The position numbers and the translations under genes were made by a program. 32,064 bases of DNA from an archaeon (GTDB taxonomy: Archaea > Nanobdellota > Nanobdellia > Woesearchaeales > GW2011-AR9), in assembly GCA_023259115.1 (NCBI GenBank), contig JAHFQW010000018.1, forward strand, positions 1 through 32,064, read 5' to 3'. Position 1 is the first letter of the stretch. Every line of letters begins with the position of its first letter. Shown in pieces: positions 688 through 32,055 of the stretch. Under the pieces are notes generated by a model. It searched no databases. It was not told the DNA's origin and worked only from the letters and a program-made list of their open reading frames with translations.

Positions 688-2079
688 TTATGATATTTCT
701 TTTTGAGAAGTTATTTCTTTTTGATAGGCGTTTATAAGTCTATGGGCAATGTTTTTTTCTTGGTATTGTGTTAGATTTTCAGTGTTTGGTTTGCTCTTTT
801 TTTTAATTTTTTCTTCTATGATTTTTTGAATGGTGTTATGAAGTGTTTGAGGATCACCGGGGGGGACGAGAAAATCATTTGGACTGATAGTTTCGGGAAT
901 AGCACCACTGTTTGAGGCGATGACGATTTTGCCTGCGGCGTGGGCTTCGATAGGGATTCTACCAAATGGTTCGGGCCACAGGGAGGGGAAGAGGATGATG
1001 TCTGCGTGTTGATAAAGTTGGGGGATTTGGGTGTAGGCAACGGGTGGATGGATGGTTGCGTCTATATGATGTTGAGTGATGTAGGTTTGAAGTTCTGATT
1101 TGAGAGAGCCATCGCTGTATAAATCGAGATGGACGTTGAGGTTTTTTATTGCTTGGAGGATAATTTGAGGGCCTTTGAATGCGGTGAGCGAGCCAAGGTA
1201 GAGAAGAGTAGGTTTCTTTTTGTTGTTAATGATGTTGTCGCTTTTTTGAGTTAGTTGTTTTGCTGCGTTTTGGAATGGTTTTATGTCGAGAGCGTTGGGG
1301 ATGATGATACTTTGATGTTGCTGTTGGGTGAGAAGGGTTTGGACGTATGCGCTAATGGCGATGAGATGGCAGTGTTGTAATGAGGAGTTGAGTTGTTTGT
1401 AGTAGTGGTAGATGGAGAAGAGGAAGAGGGGGTTGTATTTGAGATACCAGTGGTTTTGGATTTTGCCGATTTCGGTTGATTGTTGCTGGCAGATGAGAAA
1501 TTTTTGGAGTGTGCAGATGTGCGGACAGGCGTGTTTGCTTTTGTAGAAGCGATCGCCTTTGGGGCATAAAGCGGGATAGCTTTCGATGGTGGCAAAGAGA
1601 GGAATGTTTTTTGTTTTGGGGTGGGTTTTTAGAGGAGTTTGATTAACCCTATAACACTTGTCAAACTCCTCTAAGAAGGACTTTGAATATTGATGAATAT
1701 ATAGGTTATTCAAAGTCCTCTTTAGTTGTTTTGCGGCGATGATACTTGGGCCGATGAAGTGGATGATGTCAATAGGGGGTTGGTTGGTTTTTTGGAGCTT
1801 GCGAATGAGGGAGATTGTTTGTTTTATGATGGAGGGGGGGAAGAAAATGCGGCGTTTGAGGTTTTGGATGAGCGAGTTGGGGGTGGTGCCGGTTTTTAGT
1901 GTGCGATAGATGTGGACGTTGTTGAGGGTTTCGTGTGTTGGAAGATGGGGGAATTTTGCGGTGAGAATAGAGATGGTGTGATTTTCTTTGGCGAGGGCGT
2001 GGGCTATGGTTTGGAGGTTGATTTCGCCGCCGCCCATGATTTTTGGGGGGTAATATTCGGAAATAAAGAGGATGTGCAT
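688..2079 (-). CDS. Glycosyltransferase family 4 / group 1
   Basis: 463 aa; N-terminal ILFISEYYPPKIMGGGEI and C-terminal LFPSLWPEPFGRIPIEAHAAGKIVIASNSGAIPETI typical of GT4. Contains an extra segment coded by a palindromic element (1628-1724). Confidence 0.88.
   Translation of the reverse strand: MHILFISEYYPPKIMGGGEINLQTIAHALAKENHTISILTAKFPHLPTHETLNNVHIYRTLKTGTTPNSLIQNLKRRIFFPPSIIKQTISLIRKLQKTNQPPIDIIHFIGPSIIAAKQLKRTLNNLYIHQYSKSFLEEFDKCYRVNQTPLKTHPKTKNIPLFATIESYPALCPKGDRFYKSKHACPHICTLQKFLICQQQSTEIGKIQNHWYLKYNPLFLFSIYHYYKQLNSSLQHCHLIAISAYVQTLLTQQQHQSIIIPNALDIKPFQNAAKQLTQKSDNIINNKKKPTLLYLGSLTAFKGPQIILQAIKNLNVHLDLYSDGSLKSELQTYITQHHIDATIHPPVAYTQIPQLYQHADIILFPSLWPEPFGRIPIEAHAAGKIVIASNSGAIPETISPNDFLVPPGDPQTLHNTIQKIIEEKIKKKSKPNTENLTQYQEKNIAHRLINAYQKEITSQKEIS
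1628..1724. repeat. Two-hairpin palindromic element inserted in frame inside the GT4 CDS (copy 1)
   Basis: Hairpin 1: ttagaggagtttga (1629-1642) / tcaaactcctctaa (1661-1674), 14 bp perfect. Hairpin 2: ggactttgaata (1678-1689) / tattcaaagtcc (1707-1718), 12 bp perfect. Related copy at 31803-32055. Confidence 0.85.
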
Positions 2080-3803: not shown

Positions 3804-3869
3804 GGTAGAGAGGATTTTTTTTATTTACTTGCGGTTGAGAGGGATTTATAGTACTGGTGAATAATTTTC

Positions 3870-4240
3870 GAATTCGAGTCACTGCGGTTCGTGATAAAGT
3901 CACTAGCGTTCCTCAAGTCACTGACGTTTGTGACTTGCTTATCAGTAAGTAATGTTGCTGATGCAACACTTTGCTGAAGCAAAGCTTTGTTCACCATTAT
4001 ACTCACTCACTCACTCACATAAATAATTAAGCAATACTTGCTCGTTTGTAATAAACAAAGAACATATCTAAAGATAATTGCGTTATTATTGTTACATTAC
4101 ACGCAATTATCTAATAAGTAAATTGCCTAATTTGATGTAACTTAATTACTGCAATTTACTATATTGCTAAATTATTTGTGTTCTTTGCTATACTAATAAG
4201 TAAATGTGTAGATTAATATTATTTTACACATTTACTATAT
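3870..4240. repeat. Cluster of inverted repeats/hairpins in intergenic DNA
   Basis: Stems: 3914-3921/3930-3937; 3953-3958/3963-3968; 3969-3974/3979-3984; 4024-4036/4162-4174 (12/13); 4056-4064/4179-4187; 4072-4082/4102-4112; 4117-4126/4151-4160; 4199-4210/4225-4236 (perfect unless noted). Confidence 0.8.
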
Positions 4241-5000: not shown

Positions 5001-8000
5001 TTACGTTGTTCTTTTTTCTTTAACGTAAATCAAGTGATAACCAAATTGAGTTTTAATTGGGCCGGAAATTTGTCCGGGTTCTAAACCGAAGGCGACGTTT
5101 TCAAATTCGGGAACCATCATGCCTTTACCAAACCACCCTAGCTCGCCGCCGTTATTTTTTGAACCTGGATCTTGGGAGTATTTTTGGGCGTAGTTAGCAA
5201 AGTTATCTTTGGTTAGTTGTTTACGAAGTTCTTTTGCTTGGTTGAATACTTCGGTTTCGTTTTTGTTTTGTGTACTGAGTAAGATATGAGCGGCGTTAAC
5301 TTCTGGTTTTGGTAAGAAGTAGATTTTATTTTCTTGCTGGCAGTTGTAGTCAACAAGCCAGGTGCTGATTTTTCCACCGCTCATTTCATTTGTTTGGCTG
5401 AATTTCTGGAAACATTTCAGGCCATGACCGTTGAAGAAGAATAATTTAGTAAATGTACTTGCGGCAATGGCAGGGTCTGCAACTAGTGTTTGATAGCTAT
5501 CATCTTTAGGTAAGAGTATGATGGAGGCAGGCACGGTTTTGGTGTCTTTTCTTTGGAATTTTTTTTCTTTTACTGATTCTTTGTCTGCGTAGACTAATGA
5601 TGCAGGATAGACTTTTTCTTTTTGATCGTTTTTAAATGTGGCATCCATGGTGCGAAGATCAATTTCTACGATGGCGTTGCCTTCGCGTGTTTGGATGGGG
5701 CAGAGAATGGTTTGGTTGATGGGCTTCTCACAATTACTTATACCAGAGAGGTAGGAAGGCCAGTTGGCAATCCATTTGTCGGCATCAGTAGTTTGAATTT
5801 CGGCATGGATTTTATCGGCTTGATCTGCAGTGAGATTGAAATGTGCAGTTAGATATTTCACTGCTTCTTCACGGTTCATGTTGTGAGTTTTTTGATACAT
5901 GACGGCTTTTTCAAAGTCCCACGTGCCAAAGTGGCCCCAGACGCCAGTTTTGCCAACCATATCGTCAGAGGTGATGTAGTAGTCTTTTGGTGCGTTATCG
6001 CAGTGTGTGTATTTTAAGATTTGATCGGCTTGCTGAGCGGTTAATTTGTATTTCTGGGTTAATGTTTTTTGCGCATCTGATTTTGATTGAACAATGATTT
6101 CGTTTAATAGGTTAATTTCCTCATCGGTTCGATTGAGCGTTTCTTGTGTTTTACTTGCGGCAATCTTATCTAGTTTATCAAATGCGTTGTTTTGGCCGCA
6201 GTTGAGCATATGCACTATACCGGTTGATAGTTTTTCGTCTGAAGTTGCAAGTGATTTTCCGACCCAGTAGGCATCGTAGCCGACTTGTGTTCCACCATCA
6301 AACGTAACAGGGCGATCGGCAACGGCTTTAAACCAGTGACCAAAGTCCCACCAAGATGTGATTATGGCATTAGGCGGCGCTTCGGTTTTAATTTTAGTGA
6401 GGGCATTATACCAGCCGTCGTTCATACTAGAAACGGAGTTATAGGCTTGGCTATATCCTGATTTGATGGGTGCGATAAGTAGAAAACAGAGTAGTGCGAA
6501 TATGGTGATTTTGGTGAGAAGGTTGTTGAGTTTTAGTTCTTTGGAAAGCCATTGTGAAGCGTGGTGCCATGTAAAGCCCATGAATGCGCCAAGACTTATG
6601 GCCATGACGGGAGTTACTTGGAGGATGAAACGCACGCCTTTAGTGGTTCCATACATTGCGGCGATGAACCACATGGCAAGGAAAAAAGTTGTTTTAATAT
6701 CGCGGCGGGATGTTTGTTCGTTCTCAATACGCTCAGTACGTAGAAGGCATAATAAAATACCAATACAGGCTAGGGTGATGAGTAATTGACCATCAAGTTG
6801 TTCTATAACTTTGCTGAGTGAGACAACGTTTAATTCTGCAACGGTTGTGTGAATATTAGGCCAATAGGAATATACACCAACGGCTTTGAGTACGGAAAAG
6901 CCTATCATTCCTAAAACAAGGCGTTTGAATTCTTCAAGAGATACAAAAAGGGTGACAAATAGTGCGGAGGAGAGGAGATATATGCCAATCATACTTAGAG
7001 GAGGTAGAATGGCGGTTTTCCATTGATGGCGTTCCATTATTATGGTGTAGATTAAATATATCCCTAACGTGGCGAGAATGAAATCAGAGATATACCACCA
7101 TCCCGTCCAGGCGAAGGCAAATAGGCCTGTTGCGAGTCCTGCACCTGCAAGCCAGATCAATTTACGTTTGAGATTTCTTGCGTCAAATGAGGCGAGGAAT
7201 AACCATGTTATGAGCATGGGAAAAAATACGGTGTAGACATCGGTATCAGAACTCTCTCCAGTGGTTCGAGCAACAAAGAATGCGGATACGGCAATTAACA
7301 TGGCGGTGAAAAAGCCGCCGACATTATTTTTGGTGATGATTCTGCCAATGAAGAATGCGGGGATGACGGTTAATGCTGCGAAAATGGTACCTGTGTAAAA
7401 GAATGTGGCCATGACGGGCAGGGTTGTAAAGAGGTTGATAATGGTATATATAATGAAACTGGCGATGTTGTGAAAGTTCCAATCGGCTTCTTTTCCGATG
7501 GGTGCCAGACGATAGGAATCCCATAGTTTACCATCTTTGTATTCAGTTCCTGGATAGCCGTGTTCGACAATGTTTCTTGTTTCGCGATAATAATAATAGG
7601 GATCAATTCCAAGAATATAGATGTTTCCGTTATCATCTTTAAACTGATTACGATATTGGTCTGCGAGTTGGGTTGTTTGTGTTTCGATTTGCGCTTTGTT
7701 GGAGTTATAAAATGTAGCCCATTCTTTATCTAAGATGGATTTTTTATTTGCCTGGGGAAGATTGGGGTATTGCTGGTTTACCTGAGATTGTAATTGATTC
7801 TGATAGTAATTATTGATGGTGTTTTGGGCCCAATCATTGGCAATAGGAAGGCGCTGGGGCATGGTGCGCAAGTAGACGGAAAAAGAAATAGCAATGAGGA
7901 TACAGATAAGGGGGATAATCCATTTGGCATGGGTTTTGAAAAATGTTTTTACAGATGCGGTGTCTATGGAGAAGTCGTCATCATTTTTTTTTGGATGAGA

Positions 8001-8189
8001 TAGTTCAGAGGACTGTGTATGTGATGATGGTGAGGGGGTATGAGGGTGTGCGGGGTGATGGTCTGTTTTTGTATGTTCTGGGGTGTTTGATGTATCAGAT
8101 TTGAAGAGGTTTTTTATTTTTGAGGTGAATTTTGAGAAGTCGAGAACTATTTCGTCATCGGATTTTTCGGGATGAGTTTTGTCAGTCAT
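5001..8189 (-). CDS. STT3/AglB-type oligosaccharyltransferase with C-terminal PpiC (parvulin) peptidyl-prolyl isomerase domain
   Basis: 1062 aa, multi-TM; catalytic SWWDFGHWFKAVADRPVTFDGGTQ (WWDxG) and SSDTDVYTVFFP. C-terminal AAHILLSTQNKNETEVFNQAKELRKQL...GGELGWFGKGMMVPEFENVAFGLEPGQISGPIKTQFGYHLIYVKEK is a canonical parvulin. Confidence 0.95.
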   Translation of the reverse strand: MTDKTHPEKSDDEIVLDFSKFTSKIKNLFKSDTSNTPEHTKTDHHPAHPHTPSPSSHTQSSELSHPKKNDDDFSIDTASVKTFFKTHAKWIIPLICILIAISFSVYLRTMPQRLPIANDWAQNTINNYYQNQLQSQVNQQYPNLPQANKKSILDKEWATFYNSNKAQIETQTTQLADQYRNQFKDDNGNIYILGIDPYYYYRETRNIVEHGYPGTEYKDGKLWDSYRLAPIGKEADWNFHNIASFIIYTIINLFTTLPVMATFFYTGTIFAALTVIPAFFIGRIITKNNVGGFFTAMLIAVSAFFVARTTGESSDTDVYTVFFPMLITWLFLASFDARNLKRKLIWLAGAGLATGLFAFAWTGWWYISDFILATLGIYLIYTIIMERHQWKTAILPPLSMIGIYLLSSALFVTLFVSLEEFKRLVLGMIGFSVLKAVGVYSYWPNIHTTVAELNVVSLSKVIEQLDGQLLITLACIGILLCLLRTERIENEQTSRRDIKTTFFLAMWFIAAMYGTTKGVRFILQVTPVMAISLGAFMGFTWHHASQWLSKELKLNNLLTKITIFALLCFLLIAPIKSGYSQAYNSVSSMNDGWYNALTKIKTEAPPNAIITSWWDFGHWFKAVADRPVTFDGGTQVGYDAYWVGKSLATSDEKLSTGIVHMLNCGQNNAFDKLDKIAASKTQETLNRTDEEINLLNEIIVQSKSDAQKTLTQKYKLTAQQADQILKYTHCDNAPKDYYITSDDMVGKTGVWGHFGTWDFEKAVMYQKTHNMNREEAVKYLTAHFNLTADQADKIHAEIQTTDADKWIANWPSYLSGISNCEKPINQTILCPIQTREGNAIVEIDLRTMDATFKNDQKEKVYPASLVYADKESVKEKKFQRKDTKTVPASIILLPKDDSYQTLVADPAIAASTFTKLFFFNGHGLKCFQKFSQTNEMSGGKISTWLVDYNCQQENKIYFLPKPEVNAAHILLSTQNKNETEVFNQAKELRKQLTKDNFANYAQKYSQDPGSKNNGGELGWFGKGMMVPEFENVAFGLEPGQISGPIKTQFGYHLIYVKEKRTT

Positions 8190-8336: not shown

Positions 8337-10211
8337 TCACTTTTTCTCTTTTTCGTCAAGCAAATATAATATGTCATCTGTGGGATGTCTATATAGTTCG
8401 GCGTTGAGGCGTTTTTGGTCGAGGATGTGGCCTATGAATCCAATACTTCGGCTGAGAGCGAAGAGGGCATTGAGGTAGCCGATACTAATGATTTGGCTGA
8501 TTTCTTCTGGGGTGAATTGGTTTGAGGATGTAATGGCGTCAAGAAAACAGACGGCGATGCAGCCATCCACATTTAAGATGAGGTTTTCGGCTTTTTCAAG
8601 AGTGATTTTTTCTACATTGAGCGCGTAGTTGAGATAGTGGGTTGATGCGAAGTGGATTTTGGCGTATTGTTTGAGGAGTTCGACGCGTTTGTCGGGGTTG
8701 CGTTTGGATTTAATGCGGTGACCAATACCTGGGATGAGGATGTTTTGCTGTTTCATTTGTTCTACGAATTGTTCGGCAGGTGTATTGGTGTCTTTTGCTT
8801 GTTTGAAATAGCGTGCGGCGTCGTCGATGGCACCACCAAATCTCGGGCCTATGGTGAGAAGTCCTGCGCATAATGAGGAGATGATGTCTTTGCCGGCGCG
8901 TGCGGTAACAATAGCGTTATGCGCACCAGAGACGGCGGGGCCGTGGTCGGCACAAATTATGATTGCGAGTTCGATGAATTTGGTGATGGGGGTAGAGAGT
9001 GGTTTTTTGAACCAGAGCAGAGCGATGATGTCGCCTATGGAACTATTTTGTTCGATTAATTGGCTGATGGGGAACTGGTTGTAGGTTGGTTCTTCTCCGA
9101 TGTCAGAGGAAATGGTGGTTGTGAAGTTGGTTGGTTTACGTATGATGCCTGCGTTTAGGGCGTCGATGTAGTCTAGGGGTACGGGTTTAGGAGTAGCGGT
9201 TGTTTTTTTGCTGATGTCTGTGTTGTGCATGTTTTTTCCTGTGTCTTTTTTTTCTGTGTCAACGATCTTTTTAAATGTTTGTTGAAGTATGTTCTCTAGT
9301 TTTTGAAAATTTTCTGGAACGATGATGCCGGCGTCTCGGAGGGCTTGGTTTTTGGCTTTGGCACTTTCTTGTGTCTTTCCAGCTTTGGCACCGGCATGGC
9401 CAAATTGGATTTCCCAAGGGAATAAAGAGGCGCAGGTTCCAGGTACCCACATGACGAGAGGTTTGGTTATTTTTCCGGCGTTTTTTGCGTCTATTATGTC
9501 ATATTCTTGTGTGCCGCCTAATTCTCCGAGTGTTACGAGCATGGAGATGTCTGGGTCGGCTTGGAAACGCAGGAGGTGATCCAGCAGAGTGGAACCGGGA
9601 TAGAGATCTCCACCTATGGCGATACCTTCTTTTATGCCATCAGTAGTTCTAGAGATCATATTGAATAGTTCGTTCATCATGCCGCCGGATTTGGATACTA
9701 AACCTATGGAACCGGGTTGGTATAATTTTGCTCGCAGAACATTTTCAATTTTTCCTCCGGCGTAGCCGGCAATGCGAAATGAACCTGCGGCAATACCTCC
9801 GACAGTTGAGGGACCAATGAGGAGTTTTGGATGTTGGGGGTCTTGTTTTGCAAGAGCAATGAGTTGTTTTGTTTGTTGTTCAGGTATGCCTTCGGCGACG
9901 ATGACGATGGTCTTAAGTGAGGGTGAGGCGAGTGCTTGTTTTGATGAGGAGAAGGCGGAGCGATATGAGGCAAAGTTAATGAGGACTTCGGCTTTGGGGT
10001 GGTTGTGTGTTGCGTCTGTGAGTGATTGATAGAGGGGGATGCAGATTTCTTGTTGTCCAAAAAATGCTTTATGAAAGCCAGAACGGCCGGGATGAATGAT
10101 GGCGACAACGCTGGGAGTTCTGTTGCACATGTAATCAAAGTCAAGCATCTGTTGGATGGGGAGAGCTTTGAGGTTGTAAAAGATGGCGGTGGTGTTTCTG
10201 GTGAAGTTCAT
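8337..10211 (-). CDS. aclA: ATP-citrate lyase alpha subunit (CoA-ligase alpha + citryl-CoA lyase/citrate synthase-like domain)
   Basis: 624 aa; phospho-His motif IQFGHAGAKAGKTQESAKAKNQALRDAGIIVPENF; C-terminal GLLTIGPRFGGAIDDAARYF, GIGHRIKSKRNPDKRVELL, ALNVEKITLEKAENLILNVDGCIAV, IGFIGHILDQKRLNAELYRHPTDDILYL closely resemble ACLY/AclA. Confidence 0.93.
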   Translation of the reverse strand: MNFTRNTTAIFYNLKALPIQQMLDFDYMCNRTPSVVAIIHPGRSGFHKAFFGQQEICIPLYQSLTDATHNHPKAEVLINFASYRSAFSSSKQALASPSLKTIVIVAEGIPEQQTKQLIALAKQDPQHPKLLIGPSTVGGIAAGSFRIAGYAGGKIENVLRAKLYQPGSIGLVSKSGGMMNELFNMISRTTDGIKEGIAIGGDLYPGSTLLDHLLRFQADPDISMLVTLGELGGTQEYDIIDAKNAGKITKPLVMWVPGTCASLFPWEIQFGHAGAKAGKTQESAKAKNQALRDAGIIVPENFQKLENILQQTFKKIVDTEKKDTGKNMHNTDISKKTTATPKPVPLDYIDALNAGIIRKPTNFTTTISSDIGEEPTYNQFPISQLIEQNSSIGDIIALLWFKKPLSTPITKFIELAIIICADHGPAVSGAHNAIVTARAGKDIISSLCAGLLTIGPRFGGAIDDAARYFKQAKDTNTPAEQFVEQMKQQNILIPGIGHRIKSKRNPDKRVELLKQYAKIHFASTHYLNYALNVEKITLEKAENLILNVDGCIAVCFLDAITSSNQFTPEEISQIISIGYLNALFALSRSIGFIGHILDQKRLNAELYRHPTDDILYLLDEKEKK

Positions 10212-11497
10212 TGTAATCTCTCCATTGCTTTTCCTACAATTTCAATCATTGGCGAATCTGGGCTCTTGATGATCATAGGAATGTTCATTTCTTTTCCTGC
10301 TTGCTCGATGAGTTGTAATGCGCGTTCGTAATTTGGTCCGCCTCTTCTGACAAAAATGGAAATTTTTCCAAGGCGCAATTTTTCTTGATATTCTCTGAGG
10401 GCGTTGATGATGCCTCTAAATGTTTTTTCTACGTCGGTGAAATTTGCTATCGCCCCGCCAATGATTAAGATTTTTCCTTGGGGGTGAGGGGTTCTGGTCA
10501 TTAAATCAAGAATGGTTTTGGCATATTGATACGATTCTTCTGTTGTGGGGTTGCCGGAGTATTCACCATAGTTGGCAATTTCTTGTTGTTTTCCAAGATC
10601 TGCGATGGTGTCGAGGTAAATAATACTGGCACCACCTCCAGAGAGGATGTTCCAGATTCTGCCGCGTGGATTGAGTAGGGTTAGTTTTAATGAGGCGCCA
10701 CTTTCTTTGTTGAGATGTTCAATATATTGTTCTTCGGGGAATGATGTTTGTCCAAACGCTTTTGGGAAGGTGAGGTTTTTCCATTCGAGGGGGTGTTTAA
10801 ATGAGGCGCAGTCATCAACTTGGGCAACGGTGTCAAGTATGATGATTTCTTCTTGCTCATTAAAAGTGAATGGATTGAATTCTAGGTAGGTGAAATCTAA
10901 TTCTAAAAAGAGAGTGTACATTGTTTGAATAAATGTAATTATTTTTGTTTTTTCTTTTTCAGTTATGATTTTTTGGGCAACGTTTTCTCGCATTTGGAGG
11001 AATTCTTTTACTTTTTCTGTCTCTAATGGGGTACCCGTTGCTAAAAAAAGAGTTGCAACAGATGTCCAATTCTCTTCAATGTCAATTCCACCGTTATATG
11101 AAAAATAAAGATTATTTCCATCACGAGAATTAGAACTGATGGCAAGATAATATTCCGTTTTATGTTTTATATAGGGTTCGATGAGGAAATGGGTTAGTTT
11201 GCCGGTGGCGTTGCCAATGGTTATTTCTGTGTTATGATTTGAGATGAATTCTTGCACTTGCTGATAATTGAGATTTGTTCCAATCAAGCCCAATTTTCCA
11301 CGTTTGCCAAAGAGTTGATCTGGTTTGATGACGAGAGGCGTTGTGAGGAGCCAAGGGTGTTGTTGGGGCAGAGAGGGGAGATTAGTTTGCGGGGTTACTA
11401 AGATTCCTTTCCCTGATAAAGGGAAATTGTGGTTTTGGGAGATATAGTTTTGAATAAGTTGTTTTGCGTCATATTCACGGATTTTACGGTGAGCCAT
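10208..11497 (-). CDS. aclB: ATP-citrate lyase beta subunit (ATP-grasp)
   Basis: MAHRKIREYDAKQLIQNYI..., IKPDQLFGKRGKLGLIGTNL, LEFNPFTFNEQEEIIILDTVAQVDD, GRIWNILSGGGASIIYLDTIADLG, RRGGPNYERALQLI. The ORF-track start at 11542 is GTG; ATG at 11497 fits the family N-terminus better. 4-bp overlap with aclA. Confidence 0.92.
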   Translation of the reverse strand: MAHRKIREYDAKQLIQNYISQNHNFPLSGKGILVTPQTNLPSLPQQHPWLLTTPLVIKPDQLFGKRGKLGLIGTNLNYQQVQEFISNHNTEITIGNATGKLTHFLIEPYIKHKTEYYLAISSNSRDGNNLYFSYNGGIDIEENWTSVATLFLATGTPLETEKVKEFLQMRENVAQKIITEKEKTKIITFIQTMYTLFLELDFTYLEFNPFTFNEQEEIIILDTVAQVDDCASFKHPLEWKNLTFPKAFGQTSFPEEQYIEHLNKESGASLKLTLLNPRGRIWNILSGGGASIIYLDTIADLGKQQEIANYGEYSGNPTTEESYQYAKTILDLMTRTPHPQGKILIIGGAIANFTDVEKTFRGIINALREYQEKLRLGKISIFVRRGGPNYERALQLIEQAGKEMNIPMIIKSPDSPMIEIVGKAMERLQ

Positions 11498-11535
11498 ATT
11501 TAAAGAGGGAGAGGGTTTCTTTTTAAAATTAATGA

Positions 11536-11568
11536 AATTCACATTTTTCTTTTGATTTCATGTGAATT
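11536..11568. repeat. Inverted repeat upstream of aclB
   Basis: aattcacat (11536-11544) / atgtgaatt (11560-11568), 9 bp perfect, 15-nt spacer, ~40-70 nt upstream of the preferred aclB start. Confidence 0.55.
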
Positions 11569-12643: not shown

Positions 12644-12735
12644 ATGAGGGTTAAGGTTTTTATGCTGATTGAGTAAGGATGTTGATTTGAGGTTTTTTGT
12701 TGGTATTTTTTCTATTGGTATTGTTTTAGTTAAGG

Positions 12736-12753
12736 GTATTCAAAGTTCTCTAT
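12736..12753. repeat. Solo arm related to hairpin 2 of the palindromic element
   Basis: gtattcaaagttctctata vs tattcaaagtcctctata at 14170 and 32038; spans the PAP2 stop codon. Confidence 0.5.
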
Positions 12754-13205
12754 AAAAGTATTACATTGGTTATCCCAAAAGTTATTACTCCTAAAATGAT
12801 TCCGGCAATTAAATCAATCCAATCGTGTTTTTGTAAATAGATGCGGGAATAACAAACAAGAATGCTTACTATGGTGAGGATGATGCTGATTCCGATATTT
12901 TGGAAAAAAGTGTGAAGTGTGAGGGAGAGGAAGATGATTCTTGCGGCGTGCCAGCTGGGAAAGGCGGAGGCGTCTATACGTTCGATGAAGTTGGTATATT
13001 CACGTTTTTTAGGACGGTGTTTGAAGTAGATGATGCGGGCGAGAGTTATGATGATGCCTGTGAATATGAAGCCTATGATGAGAGATTTTGCTAGTGGGTA
13101 GAGATGAAGTACGAGAGTTAAGAGAGTGAGAAGGGTGTAGAAAAATGTGCCACCTAGAGCGGTGATGTCTTTCCAGAGACCCTTTTTTATTTGGAACATG
13201 GTCAT
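12750..13205 (-). CDS. PAP2-superfamily membrane phosphatase
   Basis: 151 aa; PAP2 motifs YFKHRPKK, SAFPSWHAAR, SRIYLQKHDWIDLIAG. Confidence 0.88.
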   Translation of the reverse strand: MTMFQIKKGLWKDITALGGTFFYTLLTLLTLVLHLYPLAKSLIIGFIFTGIIITLARIIYFKHRPKKREYTNFIERIDASAFPSWHAARIIFLSLTLHTFFQNIGISIILTIVSILVCYSRIYLQKHDWIDLIAGIILGVITFGITNVILL

Positions 13206-31776: not shown

Positions 31777-31802
31777 ACTAGCGTATCTGGGGAGAACTAT
31801 TA

Positions 31803-32055
31803 TAGAAGGGTTTGATTAACTTTATAAAACTTGTCAAACCCCTCTAAGAAGTATACCAACGAACCTATTTTTTAATTAAAATAGTTATGTTCGTTGTACA
31901 AGAAAACAAACAACGATTTGTTTTCTGTACAGAAAATAAGTTATTTCTTATTTTCTTGTATATACAAAGGCACTAGCTATTTTTGGAATTAATTAGTGCC
32001 TTTGGTATACTTTGAATAATTGATGAATAATAGGGGTTATTCAAAGTCCTCTATA
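31803..32055. repeat. Copy 2 of the two-hairpin palindromic element, split by an inserted segment
   Basis: Hairpin 1: gggtttga (31808-31815)/tcaaaccc (31834-31841). Hairpin 2: actttgaata (32009-32018)/tattcaaagt (32038-32047). Flanks match copy 1 (tttgattaac, cttgtcaaac, ctctaagaag, tgatgaata, ttattcaaagtcctct). Confidence 0.82.
31849..32012. mobile_element. Candidate MITE-like palindrome-rich insertion inside palindromic element copy 2
   Basis: Perfect 11-bp terminal inverted repeats AAGTATACCAA (31849-31859)/TTGGTATACTT (32002-32012); internal hairpins 31857-31864/31889-31896 with inner 31865-31871/31878-31884; 31901-31910/31917-31926; 31931-31940/31947-31956; 31965-31975/31994-32004. Confidence 0.65.

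What the first reader, a model, noticed from the sequence alone, without database searches (positions are those of the whole stretch)
1628..1724. Palindromic element inserted in frame inside a glycosyltransferase gene
A ~97-bp element of two back-to-back hairpins (14-bp and 12-bp perfect stems) sits inside the GT4 ORF and is read through, adding roughly 30 residues (about RTLNNLYIHQYSKSFLEEFDKCYRVNQTPL) between GPSIIAAKQLK and KTHPKTKNIPLFATIE. A clearly related copy lies in non-coding DNA at 31803-32055. This parallels Rickettsia palindromic elements, which are mobile palindromes tolerated within ORFs; I know of no described archaeal equivalent of this sequence.
Basis: partly seen in the sequence, partly recalled or inferred. 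Interest (0 to 1): 0.85.

Follow-up and report, generated by a model that had tools for sequence, protein, structure and literature searches.

The report
Mobile double-hairpin element inside archaeal gene
A small jumping DNA element made of two hairpins has landed, in frame, inside a sugar-transferase gene of a Woesearchaeota-type archaeon, adding 31 amino acids; about 50 copies of it sit elsewhere in the genome, often nested inside other hairpin elements, an arrangement resembling one known from Rickettsia bacteria that I found no report of in these archaea.

Summary
Window 1628-1724 is one copy of a 97-bp double-hairpin element ("A"): an 89-bp core flanked by a 4-bp direct repeat, here TTTA. 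It sits in frame in a GT4 glycosyltransferase gene (688-2079, minus strand) and adds exactly 31 codons. Eight family orthologs lack them.

The genome has about 50 two-ended A copies (22 uninterrupted, 28 split by other elements) plus relics. Another element supplies an occupied/empty pair showing a 4-bp TATA duplication. Compensatory changes support both hairpins. A occurs in 10 of 49 genomes of the archaeal family. Named records with it are all Ca. Woesearchaeota; none was found in virus, phage or plasmid collections.

The Rickettsia-palindromic-element parallel is only partly right. GT4 is the only in-frame case; nearly all other copies are intergenic, and most carry a stop in every frame. 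A lacks the GTAG and CGTC end tags.

Best reading: a non-autonomous, MITE-like transposon. Its transposase was not found. An IS630 partner is suggested only by the shared end 5'-TATAGA, and A's 4-bp duplication argues against it. The more unusual feature is nesting: several unrelated double-hairpin families sit in each other's junctions and loops, including 31801-32055.

The parts
688..2079 (-). GT4 glycosyltransferase gene, 463 aa; the element adds 31 residues (about 121-151)
   Evidence: ORF; Pfam Glycos_transf_1 E 8e-27; orthologs lack the insert
1628..1631 (.). left target-site duplication TTTA
   Evidence: matching 4-bp direct repeats at copy ends; empty site for another copy
1632..1720 (+). 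element A core, 89 bp, GAGGAGTTTGA...CAAAGTCCTC
   Evidence: multicopy family of constant length
1629..1674 (+). hairpin 1 (stem 1629-1642 with 1661-1674)
   Evidence: fold; compensatory changes at 4 pairs
1677..1719 (+). hairpin 2 (stem 1677-1689 with 1707-1719)
   Evidence: fold; compensatory changes at 4 pairs
1721..1724 (.). right target-site duplication TTTA
   Evidence: removing 93 bp leaves GPSIIAAKQLKTHPKTKNIP in frame
31801..32055 (+). second, intergenic A copy with TATA flanks, split by nested elements
31854..32007 (+). element E' (TACCAACG...TTTGGTA) at the centre of A; TA on both sides (31852-31853, 32008-32009)
   Evidence: same arrangement in L065-L071
31899..31958 (+). element F (CAAGAAAAC...TTTTCTTG) at the centre of E', TA on both sides
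   Evidence: the same kind of element without F (element E) in L034 and with F in L030
14160..14187 (+). decayed relic: right end of an A copy
   Evidence: repeat family D1
12727..12754 (+). decayed relic: right end of an A copy (71%)
   Evidence: repeat family D1

Best explanation
Element A is a non-autonomous, MITE-like DNA transposon. It is an 89-bp double hairpin with imperfect terminal inverted repeats (TATAGAGGGGTTTGATTAACC and TATAGAGGACTTTGAATAACC, 18 of 21 equal, flank included) that inserts at AT-rich 4-bp sites, mostly TATA, and duplicates them. Net gain is 93 bp, or 31 codons. In the minus-strand frame used by GT4, the element of many copies has one stop, a TAG made by the TATA flank plus the first core base. 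Insertion at TTTA instead gives AAG, so this copy is read through as 31 residues in a loop between a helix and a strand of the N-terminal domain. Elsewhere copies survive between genes. TATA-like or TA sites remain at hairpin junctions, so new elements land there and nested composites grow. Shown: multicopy family, target duplication, in-frame insert, hairpin conservation, nesting. Inferred: a DDE-type transposase acting in trans, possibly of the IS630 family; that GT4 stays functional; that junction TATA/TA sites explain the nesting.
For: Copies: 103 BLAST segments in the own genome; about 50 two-ended copies hand-counted plus L133. 158 end motifs against 0 for the reversed pattern. Near-constant 97-bp length, and 7 copies with matching non-TATA 4-mers on both sides, 0 of 20,000 shuffles. 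DNA-level empty site: element G without A in L145 and L147 reads AATTTC-TATA-TATTGAAA; with A in L009 it reads AATTTC-TATA-[A]-TATA-TATTGAAA. GT4 orthologs lack the insert. Compensatory changes at 8 of 27 pairs, 0 of 500 shuffles. Identical copies with different flanks in two relatives point to recent movement there. Frame analysis. An IS630 transposon in a relative (L093, DDE_3, TIR TATAGAYAATTCTG) has its end motif in hairpin repeats of the window's genome.
Against: No transposon with A's own ends was found. The window's genome has no match to PF13358, PF01797, PF01609 or PF13701, though contigs break at repeats and other transposase families were not tested. A's 4-bp duplication does not fit the TA duplication usual for IS630 (own knowledge). 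Nested families differ in apparent duplication length (A and G 4 bp, E and F 2 bp, B about 3 bp), so one common transposase is unlikely. The link to IS630 rests on five or six terminal bases.
Confidence: 0.82

Rival explanations
1. A REP/REPIN-type repeat copied through single-stranded DNA by a Y1 (RAYT) transposase that recognises the hairpins.
For: Two hairpins per element and covariation that keeps each hairpin suit a hairpin-recognising enzyme; Y1 transposases occur in some relatives.
Against: No Y1 gene in the window's genome. No GTAG or CGTC tag at the hairpin ends. A 4-bp duplication that varies with the target is not expected of Y1 insertion.
Confidence: 0.1
2. A cellular regulatory hairpin, such as a terminator or RNA-stabilising 3' element, kept by selection near gene ends, with the GT4 copy an accident.
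For: Copies are almost all intergenic and several begin within a few bases of a stop codon. Both hairpins are conserved by compensatory change.
Against: Patchy presence (10 of 49 genomes of the family), copies on both strands and at gene starts too, decayed relics, target duplication, and nesting in other repeats. Selection against genic hits explains the location equally well.
Confidence: 0.06
3. The 31 residues are an ordinary lineage-specific protein loop that happens to be palindromic.
For: The frame is open and uninterrupted.
Against: The same nucleotides occur at dozens of non-coding places at up to 93% identity, and removal of 93 bp restores a readable sequence like that of the orthologs.
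Confidence: 0.01

Closest known systems
Rickettsia palindromic elements (RPE)
   Same: Short palindromic mobile repeat; can sit in frame in a protein gene and be translated; many copies per genome.
   Different: Unrelated sequence and domain of life; no CGTC end tag; one in-frame case among about 50 copies, whereas nearly half of R. conorii RPEs are in ORFs (PMC10969869, PMC3733652).
SMR-A small mobile repeats of the archaeon Haloquadratum walsbyi
   Same: About 110 bp, terminal inverted repeats, up to about 54 copies, no transposase, insert into palindromes of other elements (PMC3119063).
   Different: SMR-A makes no target duplication and targets PATEs/IS605 elements; A duplicates 4 bp and consists of two hairpins.
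MITEs of prokaryotes, including IS630-related ones
   Same: Short, non-coding, inverted ends, target duplication, AT-rich target.
   Different: Two side-by-side hairpins instead of one; 4-bp rather than TA duplication; parent transposon not identified.
Double hairpin elements (DHE/RHE) of fungal and sponge mitochondria
   Same: Paired hairpins, mobile, mostly intergenic, sometimes inside genes without being removed (PMC2800124).
   Different: Organellar, sequences unrelated; nested multi-level composites were not described in the passages read.
REP dimers nested in palindromes (Anabaena variabilis GTAG-15, H. neapolitanus CGTC-1)
   Same: Palindromic repeats lodged inside other palindromes, in A. 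variabilis with TATAGGA...TCCTATA ends (PMC3733652).
   Different: Those carry GTAG/CGTC tags and are bacterial; A has no tag.

Membership tests
MITE | short, no transposase gene, multicopy | tested here: met
   97 bp with flanks, about 50 two-ended copies
MITE | terminal inverted repeats | tested here: met
   18 of 21 positions equal between the ends of the consensus
MITE | target-site duplication | tested here: met
   4 bp; matching ends and empty site in element G
MITE | autonomous partner with the same ends | tested here: inconclusive
   none found in seven genomes by end pattern (list cut) or near 19 transposase loci; contigs break at repeats
IS630-derived MITE | TA target duplication | tested here: not met
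   A duplicates 4 bp
IS630-derived MITE | ends shared with an IS630 element | tested here: inconclusive
   only TATAGA shared with L093 TIR TATAGAYAATTCTG
Rickettsia palindromic element | large share of copies in frame in ORFs | tested here: not met
   1 of about 50
Rickettsia palindromic element | CGTC tag at one end (RPE-4, RPE-6) | tested here: not met
   no CGTC or GACG in 1628-1724
Rickettsia palindromic element | in-frame, translated insert in a protein gene | tested here: met
   GT4, 31 codons by sequence; translation itself not tested
REP / REPIN | GTAG tag and RAYT (Y1) transposase | tested here: not met
   no GTAG or CTAC in the element; no PF01797 in the genome
SMR-A (Haloquadratum) | no target duplication | tested here: not met
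   4-bp duplication

The most novel reading that the evidence does not exclude
These archaea carry a set of unrelated double-hairpin mobile elements that share one build and preferentially insert into each other's hairpin junctions and loops, so that the repeats serve as landing sites that spare genes; the machinery may recognise hairpin or cruciform DNA rather than a given sequence.
Probability: 0.25. Interest if true: 0.75.

Novelty: new variant of a known kind. Interest (0 to 1): 0.55.

Why it matters
It extends protein-altering palindromic insertions, described in Rickettsia and other bacteria, to an uncultured archaeal lineage. It also shows why one copy could be read through: the insertion adds a whole number of codons, and the 4-bp target sequence decides whether a stop codon arises. 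The nested composites, with occupied and empty sites in one genome, make the order of insertion readable and give a test bed for how transposase-free hairpin elements move.

Tried and rejected
Rfam: no family. Viral contigs, phage and plasmid records: no match. The one exact pattern match outside Woesearchaeota, in Methanolobus (L096), is chance: no full element there. Transposase families PF01797, PF13358, PF01609, PF13701: none in the window's genome. The 19 transposase loci fetched from relatives (Y1, IS630-type and PF01609) do not carry A's ends. A TA-only duplication for A was considered and dropped because TTTA, TAAA, TGTA and TATT pairs match over four bases. Selection on the 31-residue peptide was considered: the same frame is open apart from the flank stop in many copies, but one open frame among six in AT-rich DNA is not surprising, so nothing is claimed. 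Structure prediction was not run: the orthologs came from a source that tool does not accept, and a single-sequence model would be weak. The additional end-motif matches at C8, C11, C15 and elsewhere, all but one of the 20 stretches fetched, are truncated, decayed or single-hairpin relics, not full copies. The automatic gene-context table has duplicate rows and was used only to look for copies inside long ORFs and next to stop codons.

Full report
What is there. The window is contig 42 of a 1.57-Mb, 96%-complete archaeal genome. Window 1628-1724 contains two adjacent hairpins with 14- and 13-bp perfect stems; the single-strand fold is far stronger than shuffles. The 463-aa ORF 688-2079 (-) passes through it and is a GT4-type glycosyltransferase.

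Clean insertion in the gene. Orthologs in eight genomes of the same family align on both sides and lack about 31-35 residues there. The insert falls between the helix '...IIAAKQLK' and the strand 'NIPLFATIES'. Taking out 93 bp, one 4-bp repeat included, leaves GPSIIAAKQLKTHPKTKNIP in frame, comparable with the orthologs' 'GTSIIAAPKLRSLGIP'.

A multicopy family with fixed ends. BLAST finds 103 segments in the own genome. By hand I count about 50 two-ended copies and L133: 22 uninterrupted, 28 split by other elements. A scan for the end motif finds 158 ends against none for the reversed pattern; all but one of the extra stretches fetched hold only truncated, decayed or single-hairpin relics. Uninterrupted copies in this genome measure 96-98 bp, mostly 97, between TATA and TATA. 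Seven copies have other tetranucleotides that agree on both sides: TTTA four times, TAAA, TGTA, TATT (0 of 20,000 shuffles). These are direct, not inverted, so they are target duplications. An independent test comes from element G: two intact copies read AATTTC-TATA-TATTGAAA, and one with A at that place reads AATTTC-TATA-[A]-TATA-TATTGAAA. Hence an 89-bp core, a 4-bp duplication and a net gain of 93 bp.

Why the GT4 copy is readable. In the frame used by GT4 the typical element reads '*RTLNNPYIHQYSKSFLEGFDKCYRVNQTPL'. In many copies the only stop is the first codon, TAG, formed by the TATA flank and the first core base. With TTTA as target that codon is AAG. Of 30 copies of exactly 97 bp, five frames always hold a stop and the sixth is open in two copies only. 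A search with the peptide across seven genomes finds one match in a long open frame of a recognised gene: GT4. A second copy, L133:1228-1324, lies across the start region of a small ORF next to a nucleotidyltransferase gene and appears to interrupt it. With 92% of the window coding by my tally, two genic hits in 50 is far below random expectation, from selection, target choice or both.

Structure under constraint. On 32 copies, 8 of 27 pairs show changes on both sides and 92.6% of cells pair; no shuffle reaches the observed score and slid structures fall to about half. Conserved function of the hairpins, or correction between the two arms during replication, would both give this.

Nesting. Copies of A carry other elements at constant places: E or E' at the junction of the two hairpins, flanked by GA/GA or TA/TA; F inside E, E' or C, flanked by TA; B in the loop of hairpin 1; C in the loop of hairpin 2. 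Window 31801-32055 is A containing E' containing F. A in turn sits at the centre of G. These families are multicopy too. E in 'AAGAAGGAC' copies and E' in 'AAGAAGTAC' copies, each duplicating its own dinucleotide, indicate at least two independent insertions at the same junction. Inference: because double hairpins keep a TATA or TA at the junction, they offer the target for the next insertion. Part of the abundance of composites may also come from composites moving as units; the two were not separated here.

Distribution. A scan of 84,980 genomes with a 21-base pattern finds A only in Candidatus Woesearchaeota records, plus one chance match; the window's own record is not named. A covariance model finds it in 10 of 49 genomes of the family, 7 of 36 genera. 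Two relatives have identical copies at different places, so it has moved recently there. No match in viral contigs, phages or plasmids.

How it probably moves. Staggered 4-bp duplication points to a DDE-type transposase acting in trans. The helper is unknown: the genome lacks matches to four tested transposase families. A relative carries an IS630 transposon (L093) with ends TATAGAYAATTCTG; the same end forms hairpin repeats in the window's genome, and several families here begin TATAG. That is a lead, not proof: IS630 usually duplicates TA only, and A duplicates four bases.

Against the literature. RPEs were found 44 times in R. conorii and nearly half of them lie in ORFs (PMC10969869). REPs inside ORFs and REP dimers inside palindromes are known in bacteria (PMC3733652). 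Archaeal precedents are MITEs and the SMR-A repeats of Haloquadratum, which insert in palindromes of other elements (PMC3119063). My searches of the library found no paper on such elements in Woesearchaeota or DPANN archaea; the library is incomplete. I therefore rate it a new variant of a known kind.

Noticed in passing
window 3860-4240: Another intergenic cluster of nested palindromes, unrelated to A; 4055-4187 recurs at C34:23496 and C54:4391 and in part at C24 and C18.
   Followed up: partly
window 5001-8189 (-): Oligosaccharyltransferase STT3 fused to a C-terminal parvulin-type prolyl isomerase domain (Pfam), an unusual combination.
   Followed up: partly
window 8337-11542 (-): Two adjacent genes whose domains are those of a two-subunit ATP-citrate lyase (citrate-binding, ATP-grasp, CoA-ligase and citrate synthase domains).
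   Followed up: partly
L078:404-761: An A copy with B in one loop and C in the other, C holding several F-like hairpins in a row.
   Followed up: partly
L033, L069, L098: Some copies have one hairpin with its loop inverted, as if the hairpin had flipped by recombination between its arms.
   Followed up: no
L189:1311, L181:1578: Single-hairpin versions made of A's two outer ends, possible deletion products or ancestral monomers.
   Followed up: no
L095:1255-1360: A relative (G003) carries a different double-hairpin repeat of the same build, suggesting such elements are common in the family.
   Followed up: no
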